A stretch of DNA of 64,000 nucleotides, taken from the NCBI RefSeq assembly GCF_023347235.1, contig NZ_CP094467.1, positions 1,178,001-1,242,000 of the forward strand, in the 5' to 3' direction. The position numbers and the translations under genes are program-made. The DNA comes from Faecalibacterium sp. I4-1-79. GTDB lineage: Bacteria > Bacillota > Clostridia > Oscillospirales > Ruminococcaceae. The notes beneath the pieces were generated by a model. That model was not told the origin of the DNA, did no database searches, and saw only the letters and a list, made by a program, of their open reading frames with translations. Positions 6,157-48,998 of the stretch are shown here, piece after piece (the first letter of the stretch is position 1; the number at the start of each line of letters is the position of its first letter).

Positions 6157-6834
6157 ATGCGCCTTTTGGTGGTAGAGGACGAGCACTCCCTGCGGGAGGA
6201 CATTGCCCGGAAGCTGCGGCTGTCCGGGTACGAGGTGGACGCCTGTGCAGACGGCGAAGCCGCGCTGGAAGCACTGGCGGCAGAGCGGTACGACCTTGTA
6301 CTGCTGGACCTCAACCTGCCCAAGGTGGACGGAATGCAGGTGCTGCGCAGCTTACGGCAGCACGACCTTGAGACCTGTGTGCTGATCTTATCGGCGCGCA
6401 GCGAAATCGCAGATAAGGTGGAGGGTCTGGATGCCGGGGCGAACGATTATCTTTCCAAGCCATTCCACCTTGCAGAGCTGGAAGCCCGGGTGCGCAGCCT
6501 GACCCGGCGCAAGTTCATCCAGCAGGATGTCTGCCTGTGCTGCGGGCGGCTCAACTTCAACACCTGCAGCCGCGTTGCCACGGTGGATGGTCAGACCCTT
6601 GCGCTGACGCGGAAGGAGAGCGGCGTGCTGGAATATCTGCTGCTGCATCAGGGACGCCCGGTCAGTCAGGAAGAGCTCATCGAGCACGTCTGGGACGGCA
6701 GCGTGGACAGCTTCAGCAACTCCATCCGGGTACATATCTCTGCCCTGCGCAAAAAGCTGCGGGCGGCGCTGGGCTACGACCCCATCCGCAACCGCATCGG
6801 GGAAGGCTATGAGATCGGAGGAGAGGTACAATGA
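6157..6834 (+). CDS. OmpR-family DNA-binding response regulator
   Basis: The 225-residue protein has a receiver domain (about 1-115) with the acidic pocket VVEDE, the phospho-acceptor Asp in LVLLDLNLPKVDG, and the Lys of SKPF. A winged-helix output domain follows (about 130-225, LTRKESGVLEYLLLHQGRPVS...GEGYEI). The ATG at 6157 follows agggtgg; the open frame extends further upstream but lacks a ribosome site and would begin inside the divergent operon's leader. It overlaps the histidine kinase gene by four bases (ATGA). Direct repeats over its own -35 suggest it binds there. Its target may include the divergent redox operon. Confidence 0.9.
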   Translation: MRLLVVEDEHSLREDIARKLRLSGYEVDACADGEAALEALAAERYDLVLLDLNLPKVDGMQVLRSLRQHDLETCVLILSARSEIADKVEGLDAGANDYLSKPFHLAELEARVRSLTRRKFIQQDVCLCCGRLNFNTCSRVATVDGQTLALTRKESGVLEYLLLHQGRPVSQEELIEHVWDGSVDSFSNSIRVHISALRKKLRAALGYDPIRNRIGEGYEIGGEVQ

Positions 6835-7979
6835 AGCGTTTGTCCCTGCAATGGCGCATCACCCTGCTGACGGCGCTGCTCATCGCCTGCGCCTGCGTGT
6901 GCATGAACCTGCTTTTATACCGCACCGGCGTTACCGGCATGGATGCCCTCAACGGCTTTATGATGCAGTATCAGCCCGGCAGCGCGGATTCCTTGACCAT
7001 CGAGATCCCGCAGGAGGAAATGTCCAGCCTGCTGGCGCATTTTTCGCAGGAAGTCTACGATGCAAAGGTGGTTTTTGGCCGCAAGGGCTGGTGCATCACC
7101 GCCGTGGTCACCATCCTCAGTGCCGCCATCGCTTATTTTGTCAGCGGCAGAGCGCTGAAACCGTTGCAGCAGCTTGCGCAGCAGGCGCAGCGGGTCGATC
7201 AGGACAGCATTGCCACCGCCCGTCTGGATGAAGATACCGTGCAGGAATTCAGGCAGCTGAGCCGGTCGGTGAACCGGATGCTGGATGGCCTGGCACAGTC
7301 CTTTGAATTACAACGGCAGTTTGCGGGCAACGCCGCCCACGAGCTGCGCACCCCGCTGGCTATTTTGCAGACGAAGCTGGAACTGTTTGCAGAGGAGCAC
7401 CCGGCCATGGATGCCGAGACTGCCGGGCTGGTCAGCTCTCTGCGGGAGCAGCTGGATCGCCTGACCGCCCTAGTGCGCACTTTATTAGAGATGAGCAATC
7501 TGCAATCGGTCTCCCGTACCGACCAGATCGCCCTTGCGCCGCTGGTGGAGGAAATTTTGACCGACCTGACCCCCCTTGCCCAGAAAAACAATATCTCCTT
7601 GCAGCAGGACTGCGCGGAACTGGGCATGGTGGGCAGCGATGCGCTGATCTACCGGCTGGTGTTCAATCTGGTGGAAAACGGTATCAAATATAACCGCCCC
7701 GGCGGTGCGGTGCGCGTCACCCTGCGGCGGGAAAAGCAAACTGCCGTGCTGCGCGTTGCAGATACCGGCCCCGGCATCCCCGTAGATTGCAGGGACAGCA
7801 TTTTCCAGCCCTTTTTCCGGGTGGATAAGTCCCGCAGCCGGGAGATGGGCGGCGTGGGGCTTGGCCTTGCCCTTGTGCGGGAGATCGCCGTGCTGCACGG
7901 CGGCAGTGTGACTGTGGAGAGCAGCAGCGAAAACGGCACCACCTTTGCCGTCACCCTGCCGCTGGCACAGCCCTGTTGA
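6831..7979 (+). CDS. Sensor histidine kinase
   Basis: The 382-residue kinase has a first membrane helix (about 10-28), a short sensor loop, a second helix (about 88-104), and a HAMP-like linker. The catalytic core is complete: H-box AHELRTPLA (phosphorylated His), N-box NLVENGIKYN, G1 DTGPGIP, F-box FQPFFRV and G2 GGVGLGLALV. The very short extracellular part (about 55 residues) suggests sensing at or in the membrane. It is coupled to the response regulator gene by a four-base overlap and is the last gene of the operon. Confidence 0.9.
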   Translation: MKRLSLQWRITLLTALLIACACVCMNLLLYRTGVTGMDALNGFMMQYQPGSADSLTIEIPQEEMSSLLAHFSQEVYDAKVVFGRKGWCITAVVTILSAAIAYFVSGRALKPLQQLAQQAQRVDQDSIATARLDEDTVQEFRQLSRSVNRMLDGLAQSFELQRQFAGNAAHELRTPLAILQTKLELFAEEHPAMDAETAGLVSSLREQLDRLTALVRTLLEMSNLQSVSRTDQIALAPLVEEILTDLTPLAQKNNISLQQDCAELGMVGSDALIYRLVFNLVENGIKYNRPGGAVRVTLRREKQTAVLRVADTGPGIPVDCRDSIFQPFFRVDKSRSREMGGVGLGLALVREIAVLHGGSVTVESSSENGTTFAVTLPLAQPC

Positions 7980-42810: not shown

Positions 42811-43578
42811 TCATCCCCCGGTGTGGAACTGCTGCAGCGCGCCCTTTTCCAGTCGGCTTACCTGTGCCTGACTGATGCCGATCTCCTGCGCTACCTCCAT
42901 CTGCGTTTTGCCGCGCAGATACCGCAGCTCCATGATGCGCTTTTCCCGGGGGGAGAGGGCGGCTACCGTATCGCGGAACTGCAACCCGCTGATCCAGCTC
43001 TCCTCGCTGTCCGGGTCGCGCACCTGATCAATAACATACATGGCATCGCCGCCATCGGTGTACACCGGCTCGTCAAGGCTGAGCGGTTCTACCACCGATT
43101 CCAGCGCGGCGGTCACCTCGCGCCGGGCAAGCCCCGCTGCGGCGGCGATCTCGTCCATGGTGGGCTCGCGCCCCAGCTGCTTTTCCAGCGTTTCCCGCGC
43201 CTGCATGGCACGGTAGGCGGTGTCCCGCAGGGTGCGGCTTACCCGCAGGGCGTTGTTGTCCCGCAGAAAACGCCGGATCTCCCCGATGATCATGGGCACG
43301 CCGTAGGTAGAGAACCGCACCGGCTGCGCGGGGTCAAAGTTGTCGATGGCCTTGATCAGCCCGATGCACCCCACCTGAAACAGATCGTCCAGATTCTCGC
43401 CCCGCTGGGCAAACCGCTGCACCACACTGAGCACCAGCCGCAAATTGCCCTCCACCATCCGCGCCCGGGCAGCCTTGTCCCCGGCGTGGGCAAGGGTGAG
43501 CAGCTGCCGCTTTTCCGCCTCGGTCAGCACAGGCAGCTGCCCCGTGTTCACACCGCATAGCTCCACCTTGTTGTACAT
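42811..43578 (-). CDS. sigG: RNA polymerase forespore sigma factor SigG
   Basis: The 255-residue sigma-70 factor begins with the SigG-specific KVELCGVNTGQLPVL. Region 2 is clear (LRLVLSVVQRF ... DDLFQVGCIGLIKAIDNFD), then region 3 (PTMDEIAAAAGL) and region 4 with a helix-turn-helix (TQMEVAQEIGISQAQVSRLEK). It would direct late forespore transcription. The start is at the end of the GTG/ATG-rich leader after an RBS-like gggggcg; weak. It is followed upstream by a small toxin locus and sigE on the same strand. Confidence 0.93.
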   Translation of the reverse strand: MYNKVELCGVNTGQLPVLTEAEKRQLLTLAHAGDKAARARMVEGNLRLVLSVVQRFAQRGENLDDLFQVGCIGLIKAIDNFDPAQPVRFSTYGVPMIIGEIRRFLRDNNALRVSRTLRDTAYRAMQARETLEKQLGREPTMDEIAAAAGLARREVTAALESVVEPLSLDEPVYTDGGDAMYVIDQVRDPDSEESWISGLQFRDTVAALSPREKRIMELRYLRGKTQMEVAQEIGISQAQVSRLEKGALQQFHTGG

Positions 43579-43652
43579 CCAAACGCCCCCGGTCTTTTAG
43601 CTTTACCGGAAGTATGGCTCTGTGCGCCGGGCGCTATGCGTGGAAAAAATTG

Positions 43653-43680
43653 AGCGCCCCTCCGCAAAAGAGGGGCGCTT
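43653..43680. terminator. Hairpin upstream of sigG
   Basis: agcgcccctc / gaggggcgct stem. On the minus strand it is followed by caattttttcc, so it could stop transcripts entering sigG from upstream. Confidence 0.6.
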
Positions 43681-43682
43681 TG

Positions 43683-43711
43683 TAGACAAAGCTGTAATTT
43701 TATGGTATGCT
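43683..43711 (+). promoter_or_regulatory. Promoter of the small toxin gene
   Basis: TAGACA (43683-43688), 17-bp spacer, TATGCT (43706-43711), giving a leader of about 170 bases. Confidence 0.55.
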
Positions 43712-43889
43712 GTGACTGGCGGCGCAAGCCGTCCATCAGGCGCTGTGCCCACAAACGCAGGCGGCTACCTTCTCTGTTGGCAAACTGACGCTCGTTTCCA
43801 TTGCGGAACGACCCAGAACGACCCGGGAGGAGGTTCAATCAGATTGAGCAGCACTTCCCGGAGTTTTAACGAAGGGGGGTGAGCAGGAC

Positions 43890-44003
43890 ATGACGATCTC
43901 CGAAATCATCGCAGCGTTGTCGCTTGCCGTCAACGTTGTCCGCGCAGTGTTCGACATTGCATGGAAGATTACCATGGAACGCAAGAATGCAAAAAAAGAT
44001 TGA
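43890..44003 (+). CDS. Candidate type I toxin, 37-residue membrane peptide
   Basis: The peptide MTISEIIAALSLAVNVVRAV.. has one hydrophobic helix and a charged end (MERKNAKKD), the pattern of holin-like/TxpA-type toxins. A strong ribosome site (aagggggg with gcagg) precedes the ATG. Its 3' end and terminator region are covered by an antisense RNA transcribed from a consensus promoter on the other strand. A short frame starting TTG (SSTSRSFNEGG) ends nine bases upstream and might couple translation. I do not know a named family match. Confidence 0.6.
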   Translation: MTISEIIAALSLAVNVVRAVFDIAWKITMERKNAKKD

Positions 44004-44083
44004 CCGCCAACGCTTCCCCAAGCAACGGTCAATCTTGACTCGTCAATGAGGAGCTAGCCGTTTGCAGGGCCAGCGCCTCTTGT
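43991..44083 (-). ncRNA. Candidate antisense antitoxin RNA, about 93 nt
   Basis: A full-consensus promoter at 44118-44090 on the minus strand starts it near 44083. A stem aagattgaccg / cggtcaatctt (44037-43997) followed by seven T residues ends it at 43991. It overlaps the toxin mRNA's last 13 bases of coding sequence and its 3' end, the convergent layout of txpA/RatA and bsrG/SR4 pairs. Confidence 0.65.
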
Positions 44084-44089
44084 GTTTTC

Positions 44090-44118
44090 ATTATACACGT
44101 TCCCACGCGGAATGTCAA
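44090..44118 (-). promoter_or_regulatory. Consensus promoter of the antisense RNA
   Basis: On the minus strand TTGACA (44118-44113), 17-bp spacer, TATAAT (44095-44090), seven bases past the sigE stop. Confidence 0.85.
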
Positions 44119-44124
44119 GCGCTG

Positions 44125-44829
44125 TTACTCGCTCTCCAGCCGGGCTTTCAGGGTGTGGATGATGCGCTTTTCCAGCCGGGAAATATAACTCTGGCTGATG
44201 CCAAGGGCATCGGCGGCTTCCTTCTGGGTGCGCTCCACGCCGTCGGTAAGGCCGAAACGCAGTTCCATGATCTGCCGCTCCCGTGCCGAGAGCGCCGCCA
44301 CGGCGCTGCGCAGTACCGCGCGCTCAGCGTCCTGCTCCAGCTGCTGGCTTACGGCGTTGGCATCGCTGCCAAGGATGTCCGAGAGCAGCAGCTCGTTGCC
44401 GTCGCCGTCCACGTTCAAAGGCTCGTCGATACTGGTTTCCTGCCGGCGGTTGGAGCTTTTGCGCAGGTACATCAAGATCTCGTTGCCGATGCAGCGGCTG
44501 GCGTAGGTGGCAAGCTTGATGCTGCGGGCAGGGGTGAAGGTGTTTACCGCCTTGATCAGCCCAATGGTACCGATGCTTACCAAGTCCTCGGCGGGCACCC
44601 CGCTGTTCTCGTACTTTTTTGCCAGATACACCACCAGCCGCAGGTTGTGGGTGATCAGCTCCTCGCGGGCGGCGGCGTCCCCGGCAGCCATGCGGTCAAG
44701 CAGGGCTTTTTCCTGCTCGGGGCTCAGGGGCGGGGGCAGGCTTGGCCCGCCCGCCAGATAATGCACCGCGCCGCAGTAGCGCAAACGCCCCCACAGCCGC
44801 CGCCAGACTTGCCGTAAAAACTGCAACAT
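44125..44829 (-). CDS. sigE: RNA polymerase mother-cell sigma factor SigE
   Basis: The 234-residue factor has a pro-sequence-like N-terminus (about 1-28, with [10 protein letters not shown]), region 2 ([41 protein letters not shown], read in pieces), [10 protein letters not shown] and region 4 ([21 protein letters not shown]). SpoIIGA, encoded upstream, would cut the pro-sequence. A 320-base composite repeat separates it from spoIIGA, unlike the tight operon in Bacillus. Confidence 0.93.
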
Positions 44830-44873
44830 GGAAATCCCTCCTGTGCACTGTTAATTATATGTATAATAGAGGA

Positions 44874-45197
44874 AACTCCCTCAGGCAAAGCCTAGGGGCT
44901 TTGCCAGCTCCTTTTGGGAGGGAGCCTCTGGCGCTGCCGGAAACTTGCTCTTTACACCTGATGCTTTAGCAATGGGGCTAACGGCGTGCGCTCTCTCAGT
45001 CAAGCCCTGTCGGGCTTGCCAGATTCCCCCTTTTGTCGCTGCGCGACATCTTCCCCCGGAGTGGGGGAAGTCTTTCCTCAAGGGGAGAGCCAAGAGCACT
45101 GCCGGAAACTTTTTCATTGCTCCTAAAGCTTTAGCAACGGACTTTAAAACTTGGCTCTCCCTCCGGGAGAGCTGGCGCGGGAGCGCCTGAGAGGGCG
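44874..45197. repeat. Composite palindromic repeat between spoIIGA and sigE
   Basis: Outer arms ctccctcaggc and gcctgagaggg enclose at least three units of the gccagctcc / ggagagctggc and cttcccccggagtgggggaag types. There is a repeated piece ctgccggaaactt at 44935 and 45098. No gene is seen in this 375-base gap. Confidence 0.75.
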
Positions 45198-45205
45198 GAA
45201 AACTC

Positions 45206-46042
45206 CTACACCCCCGCCTCCTCCGCTACGTCATCCCCCAACAGCAGCGTCCACGCGCCGGTGGGGGCATCCGGCGCGCAAAAGGCCGCCAGCAGGCCGG
45301 GCACACGGTGCTGCCCACAGCATAGCACAGCGGGTACGGCCGGCAGCAGGCAGTGGCCGGTAACGGCGGCGCAGGGCACAAACTGCACCCCCAGCCCCGG
45401 GGGCGGGGCAGCACCGGCGGCAAACCAGCTGTCTAAGGTTTCCCGCAGCGGCGCGGGCAACCGACTGCGCACCGGCGGATACTGCACCAGCACCACCCGC
45501 CGCCCGGCAAGAGGGTCTTGCAGGGTAAAGCCGGTGTCATGGTAGGCCTGCACGGGCACAGCCGCTCCCGCAAGGTGAAGCACGGCGGCAAAGCAGCCCC
45601 GCTGCGGGCGGCCAAACACCGCCAGCAGCCCGCGCAGCAGCGCATACACCCCGGCGCAGCACAGCAAAAGCCGCCCCGGGCGCACCGGCAGCAGCACGTT
45701 CAGGTTATTGGCCTGTACCCCGGGCAGCACCACCGCGCCGCACAGCAGGCCGTTCAGCGCCGCGTACCACCCGCACAGCCGGGCAAAGCTGCGCGCGCCG
45801 GGCACGCCGTAGCACACCGCCACCACCCCGCAGCAGCTGGCTATTTTATATAGTATCGCCAGCGGGGCGGGCCACGGCGGCGCCAGCAGGGCAAGGGTGC
45901 TTGCCGCAGCCGCTGCGCTGCCCACGCACAGCCGCAGCCCGGTGCAGCTGCGCCCGCACAAAAGCCCCGCGCCCAGCAGCAGCGCGGCGGCTGCAGCAAA
46001 GTTTACCAGCAGCAATTCGTCCACAAAAACAACTGTTTTCAT
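45206..46042 (-). CDS. spoIIGA: Sigma-E processing peptidase SpoIIGA
   Basis: The 278-residue protein starts TVVFVDELLLVNF as in the family and has five hydrophobic helices in the first 150 residues. The C-terminal aspartic-protease domain has the active-site DTG in AYHDTGFTLQDP (about residue 170). It activates pro-sigma-E during sporulation. The ATG at 46042 is chosen by family start; the frame opens earlier without a ribosome site. Residues are unusually Ala/Leu/Cys-rich. Confidence 0.85.
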   Translation of the reverse strand: MKTVVFVDELLLVNFAAAAALLLGAGLLCGRSCTGLRLCVGSAAAAASTLALLAPPWPAPLAILYKIASCCGVVAVCYGVPGARSFARLCGWYAALNGLLCGAVVLPGVQANNLNVLLPVRPGRLLLCCAGVYALLRGLLAVFGRPQRGCFAAVLHLAGAAVPVQAYHDTGFTLQDPLAGRRVVLVQYPPVRSRLPAPLRETLDSWFAAGAAPPPGLGVQFVPCAAVTGHCLLPAVPAVLCCGQHRVPGLLAAFCAPDAPTGAWTLLLGDDVAEEAGV

Positions 46043-46194
46043 TGTGCAGCACCGCCTTATGGTTCTGGTAATTCTATTTTTCACAAATTTGCGAAAAAAC
46101 TTGTCACACCAGAAAAACCCGCATGAACAGTGCACATTTGCTACAAAAGCGGGGACGAGGTTTCACAGTTTTTACACTTTTTTCAAAAAAGTAC

Positions 46195-46223
46195 TTGAAC
46201 ATTTCTGGAAAGTGTGGTATATT
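46195..46223 (+). promoter_or_regulatory. Promoter of the MAM-like gene
   Basis: TTGAAC (46195-46200), 17-bp spacer, TATATT (46218-46223), with A/T tracts upstream (ttttttcaaaaaa) that may act as an UP element. Confidence 0.75.
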
Positions 46224-46243
46224 ATTGCCATCCTAGCAAGGAT

Positions 46244-46264
46244 TGAACCGGAAACACCGGTTCG
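46244..46264 (+). other. 5' UTR stem-loop of the MAM-like mRNA
   Basis: gaaccgg / ccggttc stem with a five-base loop near the expected 5' end, followed by an A/T-rich stretch leading to the ribosome site aaggga. Confidence 0.6.
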
Positions 46265-46301
46265 AAAATATTTTTTCTATTTTTGAAGGGAGTAATTCAT
46301 T

Positions 46302-46745
46302 ATGATGATGCCTGCAAATTTCTCTGCTGTGTCTGAGAACGAGATGACCTACGTTATGGGCGGTAGCGTTGCTGACTACCTGGCACCCGCTATGGGCGCT
46401 GCTCAGTGGCAGAACTTCCACAAGAACCTGATTACCATCGTTGGTAACAAGTACGTTCAGGGCTTCCTGGACAACACCGTTGGCGCTGTGTTCAGCGGCA
46501 CCTGGACCCCCGGCAACGGCCTGACCGGCTTCGGCGGCCAGTTCAGCAACATCTGGAAGAAGAACTACACCGATAATGTGACCGGTGAGTCCACTGGCGC
46601 TCAGAAGTTCGGCTACGGCGCTCTGGGCGTTGTGAACAGCATCCTGAACGTTGCTGGCAACCTGGCTGCTATCTACAACCTGGGCTTCGGCACCGCTAAG
46701 AACATCGTCAACGAGGGCAAGTTCAACTTCCCCGCCGGTGTCTAA
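46302..46745 (+). CDS. MAM-like secreted protein with double-glycine leader
   Basis: The 147-residue protein opens MMMPANFSAVSENEMTYVMG, followed by a second Gly at position 21. This is a bacteriocin-type leader cut after GG by a peptidase-containing ABC exporter. The start closely matches the 15-kDa Faecalibacterium microbial anti-inflammatory molecule (MAM) as I remember it. The mature part (about 126 residues) is rich in Gly, Asn and aromatic residues, with possible amphipathic helices near both ends (LGVVNSILNVAGNLAAIYNLG). Codons are strongly biased, and the promoter, ribosome site and terminator are strong, so high expression is likely. No exporter gene lies nearby. Confidence 0.8.
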   Translation: MMMPANFSAVSENEMTYVMGGSVADYLAPAMGAAQWQNFHKNLITIVGNKYVQGFLDNTVGAVFSGTWTPGNGLTGFGGQFSNIWKKNYTDNVTGESTGAQKFGYGALGVVNSILNVAGNLAAIYNLGFGTAKNIVNEGKFNFPAGV

Positions 46746-46804
46746 TTCTCAGACAATGCTTGCGTGACTGTGCCCTAGAGGTGCAGGGAACATACTAGCA
46801 TAAT

Positions 46805-46843
46805 AACACCCCCGTGGGCTTATGCCTGCGGGGGTGTTTTTTT
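46805..46843 (+). terminator. Terminator of the MAM-like gene
   Basis: aacacccccg / cgggggtgtt stem with a long T run. Confidence 0.9.
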
Positions 46844-46850
46844 ACCCCTT

Positions 46851-46955
46851 CCGTCTCGCGGCGCTCGCCAGCTCCCCCAAGGGGGCGCCTTTTGACAATG
46901 CCGGAAAGTTTGCCATAACCGCAAAAGCTTCCCCCTGAGAGGGCGCATTTCCCAC
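46851..46955. repeat. Partial palindromic repeat element
   Basis: It contains cgccagctcccccaagggggc, tgccggaaagttt and, at the end, ccctgagagggcgc, all shared with the copies at 42670 and 44874, but the left arm is lost. Confidence 0.6.
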
Positions 46956-47069
46956 GTTCACACTTCTTTTACCAGTCTGTTACTTTCCGTTTTGTGCTGT
47001 TTGTGGTATACTATGGTCAACATGGGTCACCATGGCAACATTGAAACAGACAGGATGTGAAATCCTCTT

Positions 47070-48998
47070 ATGAAAGATGGTTTTTTAAAGGCAGCTGCCT
47101 TTTCGCCCGCGCTGCGGGTGGCAGACTGCACCTATAACGCGCAGCAGGTGCTGGCGCAGTTGCAAGCTGCCGCGCAGCGCGGGGTAAAGCTGGCGGTATT
47201 CCCGGAGTTTTGCCTTACCGGCTACACCTGCGGCGATTTGTTTTTGCAGCGCACCTTGCAGCAGGGCGCACTGGATGCGCTGGAGTGGCTGCTTGCGCAG
47301 ACCCGCACGCTGGATACCGTAGCGCTGGTGGGCTTGCCGCTGCTGGTGCACGGCAAGCTGTACAACTGCGCCGCCGTGCTGTGCCGGGGGCAGCTGCTGG
47401 GCATCGTGTCCAAGACCTACCTGCCAAACTACGGCGAGTTTTACGAAAAGCGGCAGTTCACCTCTGGCAGCACCGAGGTGCAGACGGTGACCGTCTGCGG
47501 GCAGCAGGTGCCCTTTGGCACGTCGCTGCTGTTCCGCTGCCGCCAGATGCCCAGCTTTGTGCTGGGTGTGGAGCTGTGCGAGGATTTGTGGAGCGCGCTG
47601 CCGCCTTCCACCTTCCATGCGCTGGCGGGCGCTACCGTCATCGCAAACCTTTCTGCCAGCGATGAGACCGTGGGCAAAGCCGAGTACCGCCGCGCACTGG
47701 TGGCAAACCAGTCTGCCCGGCTGCTGTGCGGCTACCTGTACGCCTCGGCAGGGCACGGCGAAAGCACCACCGACATGGTGTTTGCCGGGCACGACCTCAT
47801 CGCCGAGGACGGCAGCATCCTTGCCGAGACTGCGCCCTTTGCGGGCGACCACGCTGAGACCGAGCTGGATTGCCAGCGCATGGAAGCCGAGCGTGCCCGC
47901 AACACCAGCTTTGAGCACACTGCCGAGGGCTATGTCACGGTGGAATTTGACCTGACACCGGAGGAAACGGTGCTCACCCGCCGCATCGACCCCGCCCCCT
48001 TTGTGCCCGGCGACCCGCAGCGCCGCGCTGCCCGGTGCGAGCTGATTTTAAAAATGCAGGCCGACGGCCTTGCCAAGCGGCTGGAACATGCCCACGCAAA
48101 AACAGCGGTCATTGGTATTTCCGGCGGCTTGGACAGCTGCCTTGCCCTGCTGGTGGCAGTGCGCGCCATGAAGCAGCTGCACCGCCCCGCCGCCGATGTG
48201 CTGGCGGTGACCATGCCCTGCTTTGGCACTACCAAGCGCACCCGCAGCAACGCCGAGATTTTGTGCGAGGAGCTGGGCGTAAGCTTTCAGGAAATTCGCA
48301 TCGCCGACACCGTGCGCAGCCACTTTGCGGATATCGGACAGGACGAGACTGTGCTGGACGTTACCTTTGAAAACGGGCAGGCGCGTGTGCGCACGCTGGA
48401 GCTGATGGACCTTGCCAACCGCACCGGCGGTCTTGTGGTGGGCACGGGCGACCTTTCGGAGCTGGCGCTGGGCTGGGCAACCTACAACGGCGACCACATG
48501 AGCATGTACGGCGTGAATGCCGGTGTGCCCAAAACGCTGGTGCGCTATCTGGTGCAGTACGAAGCCGAAGCCGCCGCCACCGCCGCTTTGCACGATGTGC
48601 TGCTGGATATTCTGGCTACCCCGGTCTCGCCGGAGCTGCTGCCCGCCAAGGACGGCAAAATTGCACAGATCACCGAGGATTTAGTGGGTCCCTACGAGCT
48701 GCACGATTTTTACCTGTATTATGTGCTGCGTTGCGGCTTTGGCCCGGCAAAGATCTACCGGCTGGCAAAGGCTGCCTTTGCGGGCAGGGCAGAGTACACG
48801 GACGCAGTGCTGTACAAGTGGCTGCGCAACTTCTATTGGCGCTTTTTTGCCCAGCAGTTCAAGCGCAGCTGCCTGCCGGACGGCCCCAAGGTGGGCAGCG
48901 TGACCCTTTCGCCCCGGGGTGACTGGCGCATGCCCAGCGATGCCTGCGCCACCCTCTGGCTGGCTGAGCTGGAGCAGCTCAAGCCCGGGGAGCAGTAA
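47070..48998 (+). CDS. nadE: Glutamine-dependent NAD(+) synthetase
   Basis: The 642-residue two-domain enzyme makes NAD from deamido-NAD, ATP and glutamine. The N-terminal nitrilase-type glutaminase (about 1-290) shows its Glu (FPEFCLTGY), Lys (SKTYLPNYGEFYEKRQF) and Cys (GVELCEDLW). The C-terminal synthetase has the P-loop ISGGLDSCLALL (about 352) and GTGDLSELALGW. The start at 47070 has no strong ribosome site right before it: aggat sits about 15 bases upstream inside a small hairpin. Confidence 0.95.
   Translation: MKDGFLKAAAFSPALRVADCTYNAQQVLAQLQAAAQRGVKLAVFPEFCLTGYTCGDLFLQRTLQQGALDALEWLLAQTRTLDTVALVGLPLLVHGKLYNCAAVLCRGQLLGIVSKTYLPNYGEFYEKRQFTSGSTEVQTVTVCGQQVPFGTSLLFRCRQMPSFVLGVELCEDLWSALPPSTFHALAGATVIANLSASDETVGKAEYRRALVANQSARLLCGYLYASAGHGESTTDMVFAGHDLIAEDGSILAETAPFAGDHAETELDCQRMEAERARNTSFEHTAEGYVTVEFDLTPEETVLTRRIDPAPFVPGDPQRRAARCELILKMQADGLAKRLEHAHAKTAVIGISGGLDSCLALLVAVRAMKQLHRPAADVLAVTMPCFGTTKRTRSNAEILCEELGVSFQEIRIADTVRSHFADIGQDETVLDVTFENGQARVRTLELMDLANRTGGLVVGTGDLSELALGWATYNGDHMSMYGVNAGVPKTLVRYLVQYEAEAAATAALHDVLLDILATPVSPELLPAKDGKIAQITEDLVGPYELHDFYLYYVLRCGFGPAKIYRLAKAAFAGRAEYTDAVLYKWLRNFYWRFFAQQFKRSCLPDGPKVGSVTLSPRGDWRMPSDACATLWLAELEQLKPGEQ

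What the first reader, a model, noticed from the sequence alone, without database searches (positions are those of the whole stretch)
46195..46843. MAM-like secreted protein next to spoIIGA
The opening MMMPANFSAVSENEMTYVMG plus G matches the leader of the Faecalibacterium anti-inflammatory protein MAM. The gene has a strong promoter, an A/T-rich upstream region, biased codons and a robust terminator. The mature part differs in length from the MAM I recall (147 vs about 134 residues in total), so this may be a distinct variant.
Basis: partly seen in the sequence, partly recalled or inferred. Interest (0 to 1): 0.75.

Follow-up and report, generated by a model that had tools for sequence, protein, structure and literature searches.

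The report
Faecalibacterium MAM protein gene
This is a real but ordinary copy of MAM, the abundant anti-inflammatory surface protein of the gut bacterium Faecalibacterium; what may be new is that other, unrelated small proteins in the same genome carry the same export tag.

Summary
A 147-residue ORF (46302-46745, +) opens with MMMPANFSAVSENEMTYVMGG and has a sigma-A-type promoter (46195-46223), biased codons and a terminator (46805-46843), beside divergent spoIIGA. It is a true MAM orthologue, not only a MAM-like leader: its mature part scores 107.8 bits against a MAM profile built without it and its sister (best of 1000 shuffles 10.6). The genome is a Faecalibacterium near F. prausnitzii ATCC 27768 (MAM 94% identical). 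147 residues is normal (120-156 in the 34-member cluster). MAM clans, the double-glycine leader, the PCAT exporter, the sporulation neighbourhood and the envelope location are published. Best mechanism: the genome's single PCAT, about 750 kb away, cuts the leader and exports MAM to the envelope. Two points I did not find in print in the searches made: (1) the EMTYxxGG leader is shared by at least three further cargo families of the genus, while MAM and a full two-part PCAT peptidase match occur in the same 26 of 31 genomes; (2) a covarying 5'-UTR hairpin in the nine spoIIGA-side mam genes. Ordinary member, modest interest.

The parts
46195..46223 (+). sigma-A-type promoter TTGAAC-17-TATATT (TG before the -10); fits the 'short promoter' of the literature (TATA box about 80 nt before the start codon)
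   Evidence: the same promoter is seen in nine mam genes at eight loci; compared with PMC8836110 section 2.2
46245..46263 (+). 5'-UTR hairpin GAACCGG-AAACA-CCGGTTC (two more pairs outside it, 46243-46265)
   Evidence: 98.2% of cells paired, 4 of 7 pairs changed on both sides, covariation score reached by 0 of 500 shuffles, 8 distinct sequences
46282..46301 (+). conserved ribosome-binding stretch TTTGAAGGGAGTAATTCATT, shared by mam genes of both promoter types
   Evidence: the only place in the own genome within 3 mismatches
46302..46745 (+). mam gene, 147 aa (stop codon included in coordinates)
46302..46364 (+). 21-residue double-glycine leader MMMPANFSAVSENEMTYVMGG
   Evidence: alignment; leader statistics; cleavage inferred, not shown
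46365..46742 (+). mature cargo, 126 residues starting SVADYL
   Evidence: profile match; low-confidence all-helical models
46805..46843 (+). intrinsic terminator
45206..46042 (-). spoIIGA, divergent neighbour (start codon at 46042 is my choice; 278 aa)
   Evidence: PF03419 E 1.4e-23
44125..44829 (-). sigma factor, sigE position next to spoIIGA
   Evidence: Sigma70 regions 2 and 4; the name sigE is inferred from position
42811..43578 (-). sigma factor, sigG position
   Evidence: Sigma70 regions 2, 3 and 4; the name sigG is inferred from position
47070..48998 (+). NAD synthase, downstream neighbour
   Evidence: PF02540, PF00795

Best explanation
The gene encodes the MAM orthologue of a Faecalibacterium close to F. 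prausnitzii ATCC 27768. It is transcribed from its own strong sigma-A promoter, its mRNA is probably stabilised by a 5' hairpin, and it is translated at high level. The 21-residue double-glycine leader is recognised and cut by the C39 domain of the genome's single peptidase-containing ABC transporter (PCAT; genome C1:1972859-1975195), which exports the cargo. Mature MAM then sits on the cell envelope as an abundant, probably self-assembling coat, and fragments reach the host. Shown here: orthology, leader, regulatory parts, one C39 transporter in the genome with the catalytic Q8, C14 and H92, and matching presence and absence of MAM and PCAT in the genus. Inferred: cleavage, export, envelope location and anti-inflammatory action of this particular protein.
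For: Mature-part profile match; 16 invariant columns in 27 aligned MAMs, six of them in the cargo; tree pairing it with the ATCC 27768 MAM (100/96); synteny with named Faecalibacterium genomes; one C39 transporter in the own genome, above the cut-off of TIGR01193, peptide cleavage/export ABC transporter, with 151-aa, HlyD and Ig-domain ORFs behind it; Q8, C14, H92; MAM at E<=1e-10 (my count from the table) and a two-part C39 match in the same 26 of 31 genus genomes; promoter, codon bias, terminator; published envelope proteomics of F. duncaniae MAM (PMC12184118: abstract, sections 19 and 20, discussion part 1 of 3 read).
Against: No processing or localisation data for this protein. The PCAT lies about 750 kb away, so there is no operon link here. 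The aspartate that the paper numbers 136 is an isoleucine at that number in the own PCAT; a GDPG aspartate three residues on (139 in the printed sequence) is the likely counterpart, but this was not aligned. One genome without MAM (G081) does hold a C39 match over the family cut-off (E 7.5e-8). Both AlphaFold models are poor (mean pLDDT 49.2 and 47.8). Only 36% identity to the A2-165-type MAM, and published clans differ widely in anti-inflammatory activity, one with none detected (PMC8836110).
Confidence: 0.88

Rival explanations
1. MAM is one cargo of a shared PCAT secretome: the EMTYxxGG leader is a common address tag for several unrelated small cargo families, and MAM's own role is that of one coat or effector component among them. 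(This extends the best explanation rather than excluding it.)
For: EMTYxxGG DNA pattern: 5 places in the own genome, 85 (my sum of the table) in 26 of 31 genus genomes, 0 for the reversed pattern. 118 distinct leader ORFs fall into four main mature-part clusters (56, 34 MAM, 13, 10) plus a pair and three singles, while the two-part C39 match occurs once per genome in 26 of 31. In the family sample the motif is in 7 of 297 genomes and the 151-aa companion of the PCAT in those 7 plus one; in G295 and G181, of two other genera, leaders sit directly behind a PCAT gene.
Against: Expression and export of the other cargos are not shown. Exporters without a C39 domain were not surveyed. The motif genomes and the PCAT genomes of the genus are not quite the same sets: G300 has PCAT and MAM but no EMTY match (its MAM leaders read ELTY), G318 (77% complete) has an EMTY match but no C39 match. 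One of the eight motif matches outside the genus (G246 contig 52) lies in a lipoprotein-like ORF and is probably chance, and the reversed control pattern matched once in the 297 genomes. The ORFs were gathered by leader pattern, so the counts are not a census; two of the three singles are from other genera.
Confidence: 0.75
2. The gene is a bacteriocin or signalling-peptide precursor that merely shares a double-glycine leader; the MAM label is misleading.
For: Double-glycine leaders and PCATs are typical of bacteriocins and peptide pheromones; the own PCAT passes TIGR01193 bacteriocin_ABC, and its nearest solved relatives are bacteriocin and competence-peptide exporters.
Against: The mature part is a clear MAM homologue; 126 residues is long for a class II bacteriocin (recalled); none of six neighbours tested looks like an immunity protein; no bacteriocin family matched MAM; published MAM is the most abundant envelope protein of F. 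duncaniae (PMC12184118 abstract).
Confidence: 0.05
3. The spoIIGA neighbourhood is functional: mam is controlled with sporulation genes or acts in a remnant spore programme.
For: In 16 of 22 loci examined a spoIIGA match lies divergent from mam or from the PCAT-mam block; of the other six, L062 holds a different leader gene and L056, L059, L061, L147 and L148 end close to the genes on that side (a shorter stretch of the same genome as L147, L033, does show spoIIGA). All eight promoter-I loci have spoIIGA within 1.5 kb. PMC8836110 reports a sporulation cluster near mam in all its genomes.
Against: The promoter is sigma-A type, and mam expression is reported high across growth phases (PMC12184118 discussion). 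A conserved neighbourhood of divergent genes needs no common function.
Confidence: 0.07

Closest known systems
   Same: Leader motif MMMPANx(8,11)VxGG, cargo with the N...GN and G..A.IY.LG motifs, spoIIGA nearby, PCAT in the genome
   Different: 36% identical overall; 147 against 135 aa; short-type promoter with a hairpin; PCAT gene not adjacent (L029 has it directly upstream)
MAM of F. prausnitzii ATCC 27768 (L044, same place as L014)
   Same: 94% identical over residues 1-141, neighbours 92-100% identical, same promoter and hairpin
   Different: 143 against 147 aa with a different C-terminal tail, and a few substitutions
PCAT1 (4RY2, 6V9Z, 8VP3; of Acetivibrio thermocellus according to PMC12184118) and ComA (8HF4), as exporters
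   Same: Same type of C39-ABC exporter as the PCAT inferred to carry MAM (phmmer E 8.2e-159 for 4RY2 and 4.4e-139 for 8HF4)
   Different: Cargo unrelated; the own PCAT comes with a 151-aa protein of no Pfam or NCBIfam family and an HlyD-type protein

Membership tests
MAM | leader MMMPANx(8,11)VxGG (motif as printed in PMC12184118) | tested here: met
   MMMPAN + FSAVSENEMTY + VMGG, 11 residues between (paper section 19)
MAM | homology of the mature part | tested here: met
   E 1.5e-32 with window and sister left out; E 2.1e-24 with all nine promoter-I members left out
MAM | genus Faecalibacterium | tested here: met
   All 19 loci of the named scan bear the name Faecalibacterium (18 MAM, one leader-only match, L062); nearest is ATCC 27768
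MAM | PCAT in the same genome | tested here: met
MAM | sporulation genes nearby | tested here: met
MAM | leader cleavage and envelope location | not testable with these tools
   needs proteomics
MAM | NF-kB inhibition or anti-inflammatory effect | not testable with these tools
   varies between clans in print (PMC8836110)
class II bacteriocin | match to a described bacteriocin family | tested here: not met
   one unrelated weak match each in Pfam and NCBIfam up to E 1

The most novel reading that the evidence does not exclude
Faecalibacterium uses one PCAT and one leader code (P-A-x-Y/F ... E-M-T-Y-x-x-G-G) to put a whole set of unrelated small proteins on its surface: MAM, a set of 107-132 aa that lies beside dnaJ in the own genome, a family of 135-150 aa and one of 73-80 aa. 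MAM would then be the best-known piece of a multi-component, PCAT-built surface coat, and part of the activity ascribed to MAM or to culture supernatant could belong to the sister cargos.
Probability: 0.35. Interest if true: 0.65.

Novelty: new member of a known kind. Interest (0 to 1): 0.37.

Why it matters
MAM is a leading candidate effector of a major health-associated gut bacterium, and its clans differ in activity, so a correctly placed orthologue close to the F. prausnitzii strain ATCC 27768 is useful. The wider point would matter more: if several other cargos share the leader and the single PCAT, removing the PCAT should strip a whole surface or secreted set, and experiments that credit MAM alone would need the sister cargos as controls.

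Tried and rejected
Structure: two AlphaFold jobs (full length with 27 sequences, mature part with 34) gave mean pLDDT 49.2 and 47.8, pTM 0.31 and 0.34; three main helices in the same order as the published AF3 description, but too weak for a fold search, so none was run. Profile search of the PDB with the MAM alignment: two weak matches, E 0.28.

Common origin of MAM and the 135-150-aa family: hhalign of mature parts gave probability 13.6%, E 0.0021; inconclusive and not claimed. The other five cluster pairs gave probabilities of 0.1-3.8%.

Rfam: two matches below their gathering scores in 45900-47100, best E 0.061.

Pfam and NCBIfam: nothing relevant for MAM or for the other cargos; the best weak match was a lantibiotic model on one dnaJ-side cargo, 18.5 bits against a cut-off of 32.95.

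Clan letter: not assigned, because the clan reference sequences were not at hand and supplements could not be read.

Limits of counts: in the leader statistics P at -18, the aromatic residue at -15 and GG were required by my pattern, so their invariance says nothing; E at -8 in 118 of 118 is informative because D, N, Q and S were allowed. The 34-member MAM cluster leaves out three MAMs with aberrant leaders (L028, L033 and the first gene of L034), and several leader ORFs of the other genera escaped the pattern. Named loci L044-L062 repeat species already seen as G handles; identical proteins were counted once. The named scan may leave out records of, or very near, the window's own genome.

Full report
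What is there. The ORF at 46302-46745 (+) encodes 147 residues beginning MMMPANFSAVSENEMTYVMGG|SVADYL. Upstream is TTGAAC-17-TATATT (46195-46223, TG before the -10), downstream a 15-pair terminator stem with a T tail (46805-46843). In that scan of 1.2 kb, 4 promoter-like sites were found against 0.8 in shuffles (three are readings of the same promoter) and 4 terminator-like sites against 1.8. Codon bias is strong: effective number of codons 26.7 against a mean of 41.1, range 27.4-52.5, for 30 long ORFs picked mechanically; with 147 codons the figure is rough. The divergent neighbour is spoIIGA (PF03419, E 1.4e-23), followed by two sigma-factor genes; NAD synthase lies downstream.

Is it MAM? 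Yes. In an alignment of 27 family members 16 columns are invariant, six of them (N42, G48, F64, G119, Y125, G128) in the cargo. A profile of MAM mature parts built without the window and its nearest relative gives the window's mature part 107.8 bits, E 1.5e-32; the best of 1000 shuffles reached 10.6 bits. A profile without any of the nine promoter-I members still gives 81.4 bits, E 2.1e-24. Mature-to-mature BLASTP against the 135-aa protein of L029 gives E 5e-14 at 32% identity.

Whose genome? The scan of named genomes confirmed 19 loci, all named Faecalibacterium, of which L062 matches in the leader only; the best is F. prausnitzii ATCC 27768 at 94%. Seven neighbouring genes are 92-100% identical to that strain. 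The 34-member MAM cluster runs from 120 to 156 aa, so 147 is unremarkable.

Distribution. In the genus set 26 of 31 genomes have a MAM match at E<=1e-10 (my count from the table), and the same 26 have the two-part C39 match of a PCAT. Of the five without, two (G313, 93%; G081, 99%) are more than 90% complete; G081 has one C39 match over the cut-off, E 7.5e-8, in a 293-aa frame, so the tool's own tally is 27 of 31. In a sample of 297 family genomes 4 matched at E<=0.001, all in the same genus, which had five members in the sample.

Exporter. The own genome has one C39 transporter, 778 aa, above the cut-off of TIGR01193, with Q8, C14 and H92 in place, but isoleucine at 136, where PMC12184118 numbers an aspartate; a GDPG aspartate lies three residues on (paper section 20). 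It is followed by a 151-aa protein of no Pfam or NCBIfam family, an HlyD-type protein and an Ig-domain protein, about 750 kb from mam. In many other loci PCAT lies between spoIIGA and mam, with the 151-aa, HlyD and Ig ORFs behind mam; some have a mam on each side of PCAT. All eight promoter-I loci (nine mam genes) have spoIIGA divergent and no PCAT match within the stretch held, about 1.5 kb on each side. So PCAT has been separated from mam in this clade; that separation, and short versus large promoters, are already described in PMC8836110 (sections 2.1 and 2.2 read). The nine promoter-I genes are one clade in the tree (96/90; L046 in it has a flagged long branch), which fits a single event.

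New detail 1, the 5' hairpin. The nine promoter-I mam genes share a hairpin in the untranslated leader (window 46245-46263). In 8 distinct sequences 98.2% of cells pair, 4 of 7 pairs change on both sides, and the covariation score of 0.592 was reached by 0 of 500 shuffles; sliding the partner by 1-3 columns drops pairing to 20-50%. Against this, the number of pairs with two-sided change and the number of pair types were not unusual in the shuffles (108 of 500 and 433 of 500), and I derived the structure from these same sequences. A role in mRNA stability is inferred. The main text of PMC8836110 does not contain the words stem, hairpin or secondary structure. The stretch TTTGAAGGGAGTAATTCATT before the start codon is common to mam genes of both promoter types and occurs once in the own genome at up to 3 mismatches; the paper reports conservation from -20 to -1.

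New detail 2, a shared leader. The DNA pattern for EMTYxxGG occurs at 5 places in the own genome and, by my sum of the table, 85 times in 26 of 31 genus genomes; the reversed pattern 0 times. These 26 differ from the MAM/PCAT set by one genome each way (G300 lacks the motif, its MAM leaders reading ELTY; G318 has it without a C39 match). Leader ORFs (118 distinct, found by pattern in the loci held) cluster by mature part into a family of 107-132 aa, often in tandem (56; beside dnaJ in the own genome), MAM (34), a family of 135-150 aa (13), one of 73-80 aa (10), one pair, and three singles, two of them from other genera. In the family sample the motif is in 7 of 297 genomes (reversed control: one match in 297), and the 151-aa PCAT companion is in 8 of 297: those 7 plus G056. 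In G295 and G181, of two other genera, the leaders lie directly behind a PCAT homologue (64% and 70% identical over 433 and 266 residues held); in G246 they lie about 3 kb from the companion gene. One of the eight matches outside the genus, G246 contig 52, is in a lipoprotein-like ORF and probably chance. So leader type and export block travel together, and reach beyond the genus to which MAM is confined here.

Literature. Searches that could have shown this in print: 2 papers each; 454, 142 and 990 papers, of which 15, 15 and 12 were listed. In those lists only PMC8836110 and PMC12184118 looked relevant. Neither, in the parts I saw, mentions other cargos of the PCAT. Seen of PMC8836110: abstract, results 2.1-2.5, discussion, legends, word finds. 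Seen of PMC12184118: abstract, sections 19 and 20, discussion part 1 of 3, word finds. Of PMC12797504, PMC6295017, PMC9674144 and PMC4573289 I saw found passages only. Supplements were not available, and most subscription papers are not in the library.

Mechanism. Most likely MAM is made at high level, its leader is cut by the C39 domain of the single PCAT, and the cargo is exported and held at the envelope. For F. duncaniae, mass spectrometry and immunogold labelling support the envelope location, while the PCAT step rests on modelling and the hexameric lattice on modelling with microscopy (PMC12184118 abstract and sections named above). For the present protein, orthology, leader and a candidate exporter are shown; cleavage, export, location and effect on the host are inferred.

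Verdict. A confirmed, well-recognised feature: a new member of a known family, close to F. prausnitzii ATCC 27768. Its interest lies mainly in the shared-leader context.

Noticed in passing
L042:6204-6530 and 6609-6959 (-); L041:7227-7670 (-); L043:5803-6033 (+) (own genome): Other ORFs with the same EMTYxxGG leader but unrelated cargos: a tandem pair beside dnaJ, a 148-aa protein and a 77-aa protein.
   Followed up: partly
L041:6830-7189 (-): Second ORF behind the 148-aa cargo with a decayed leader (PSSYAALSPEEQRAAFGG); a relative exists in L079.
   Followed up: no
L040:12356-12811 (+): 151-aa protein of no Pfam or NCBIfam family behind the PCAT; present in 8 of 297 family genomes, which include all 7 that carry the leader motif.
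   Followed up: partly
L114:1495-3293: The PCAT reading frame in one relative (G321, one contig) breaks near residue 191 and goes on in another frame; could be a sequencing error or a real loss.
   Followed up: no
L034, first mam gene: MAM whose leader runs into the cargo without the GG site (MMMPANYSVIAENEMTYVLMTASNWK), next to an intact second mam; possibly an assembly artefact.
   Followed up: no
L028 and L033: MAM genes with an altered leader (MMMPANFSAVNAEVVYGG), in genomes with a second mam on the other side of the PCAT (L147, L148).
   Followed up: no
stretches before mam in L007-L010, L021-L027, L029-L032 and L035: Two conserved stretches around TGCGCA, partly palindromic, lie upstream of the mam genes of the second promoter type, most of which have PCAT directly upstream; possibly hairpins linked to the published 5' end 110 nt before mam.
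   Followed up: no
window 42811-46042 (-): Open, unbroken spoIIGA and two sigma-factor genes of the sporulation cluster, although a Faecalibacterium species is described as asporogenous (start of the abstract of PMC11261667 seen in the listing).
   Followed up: no
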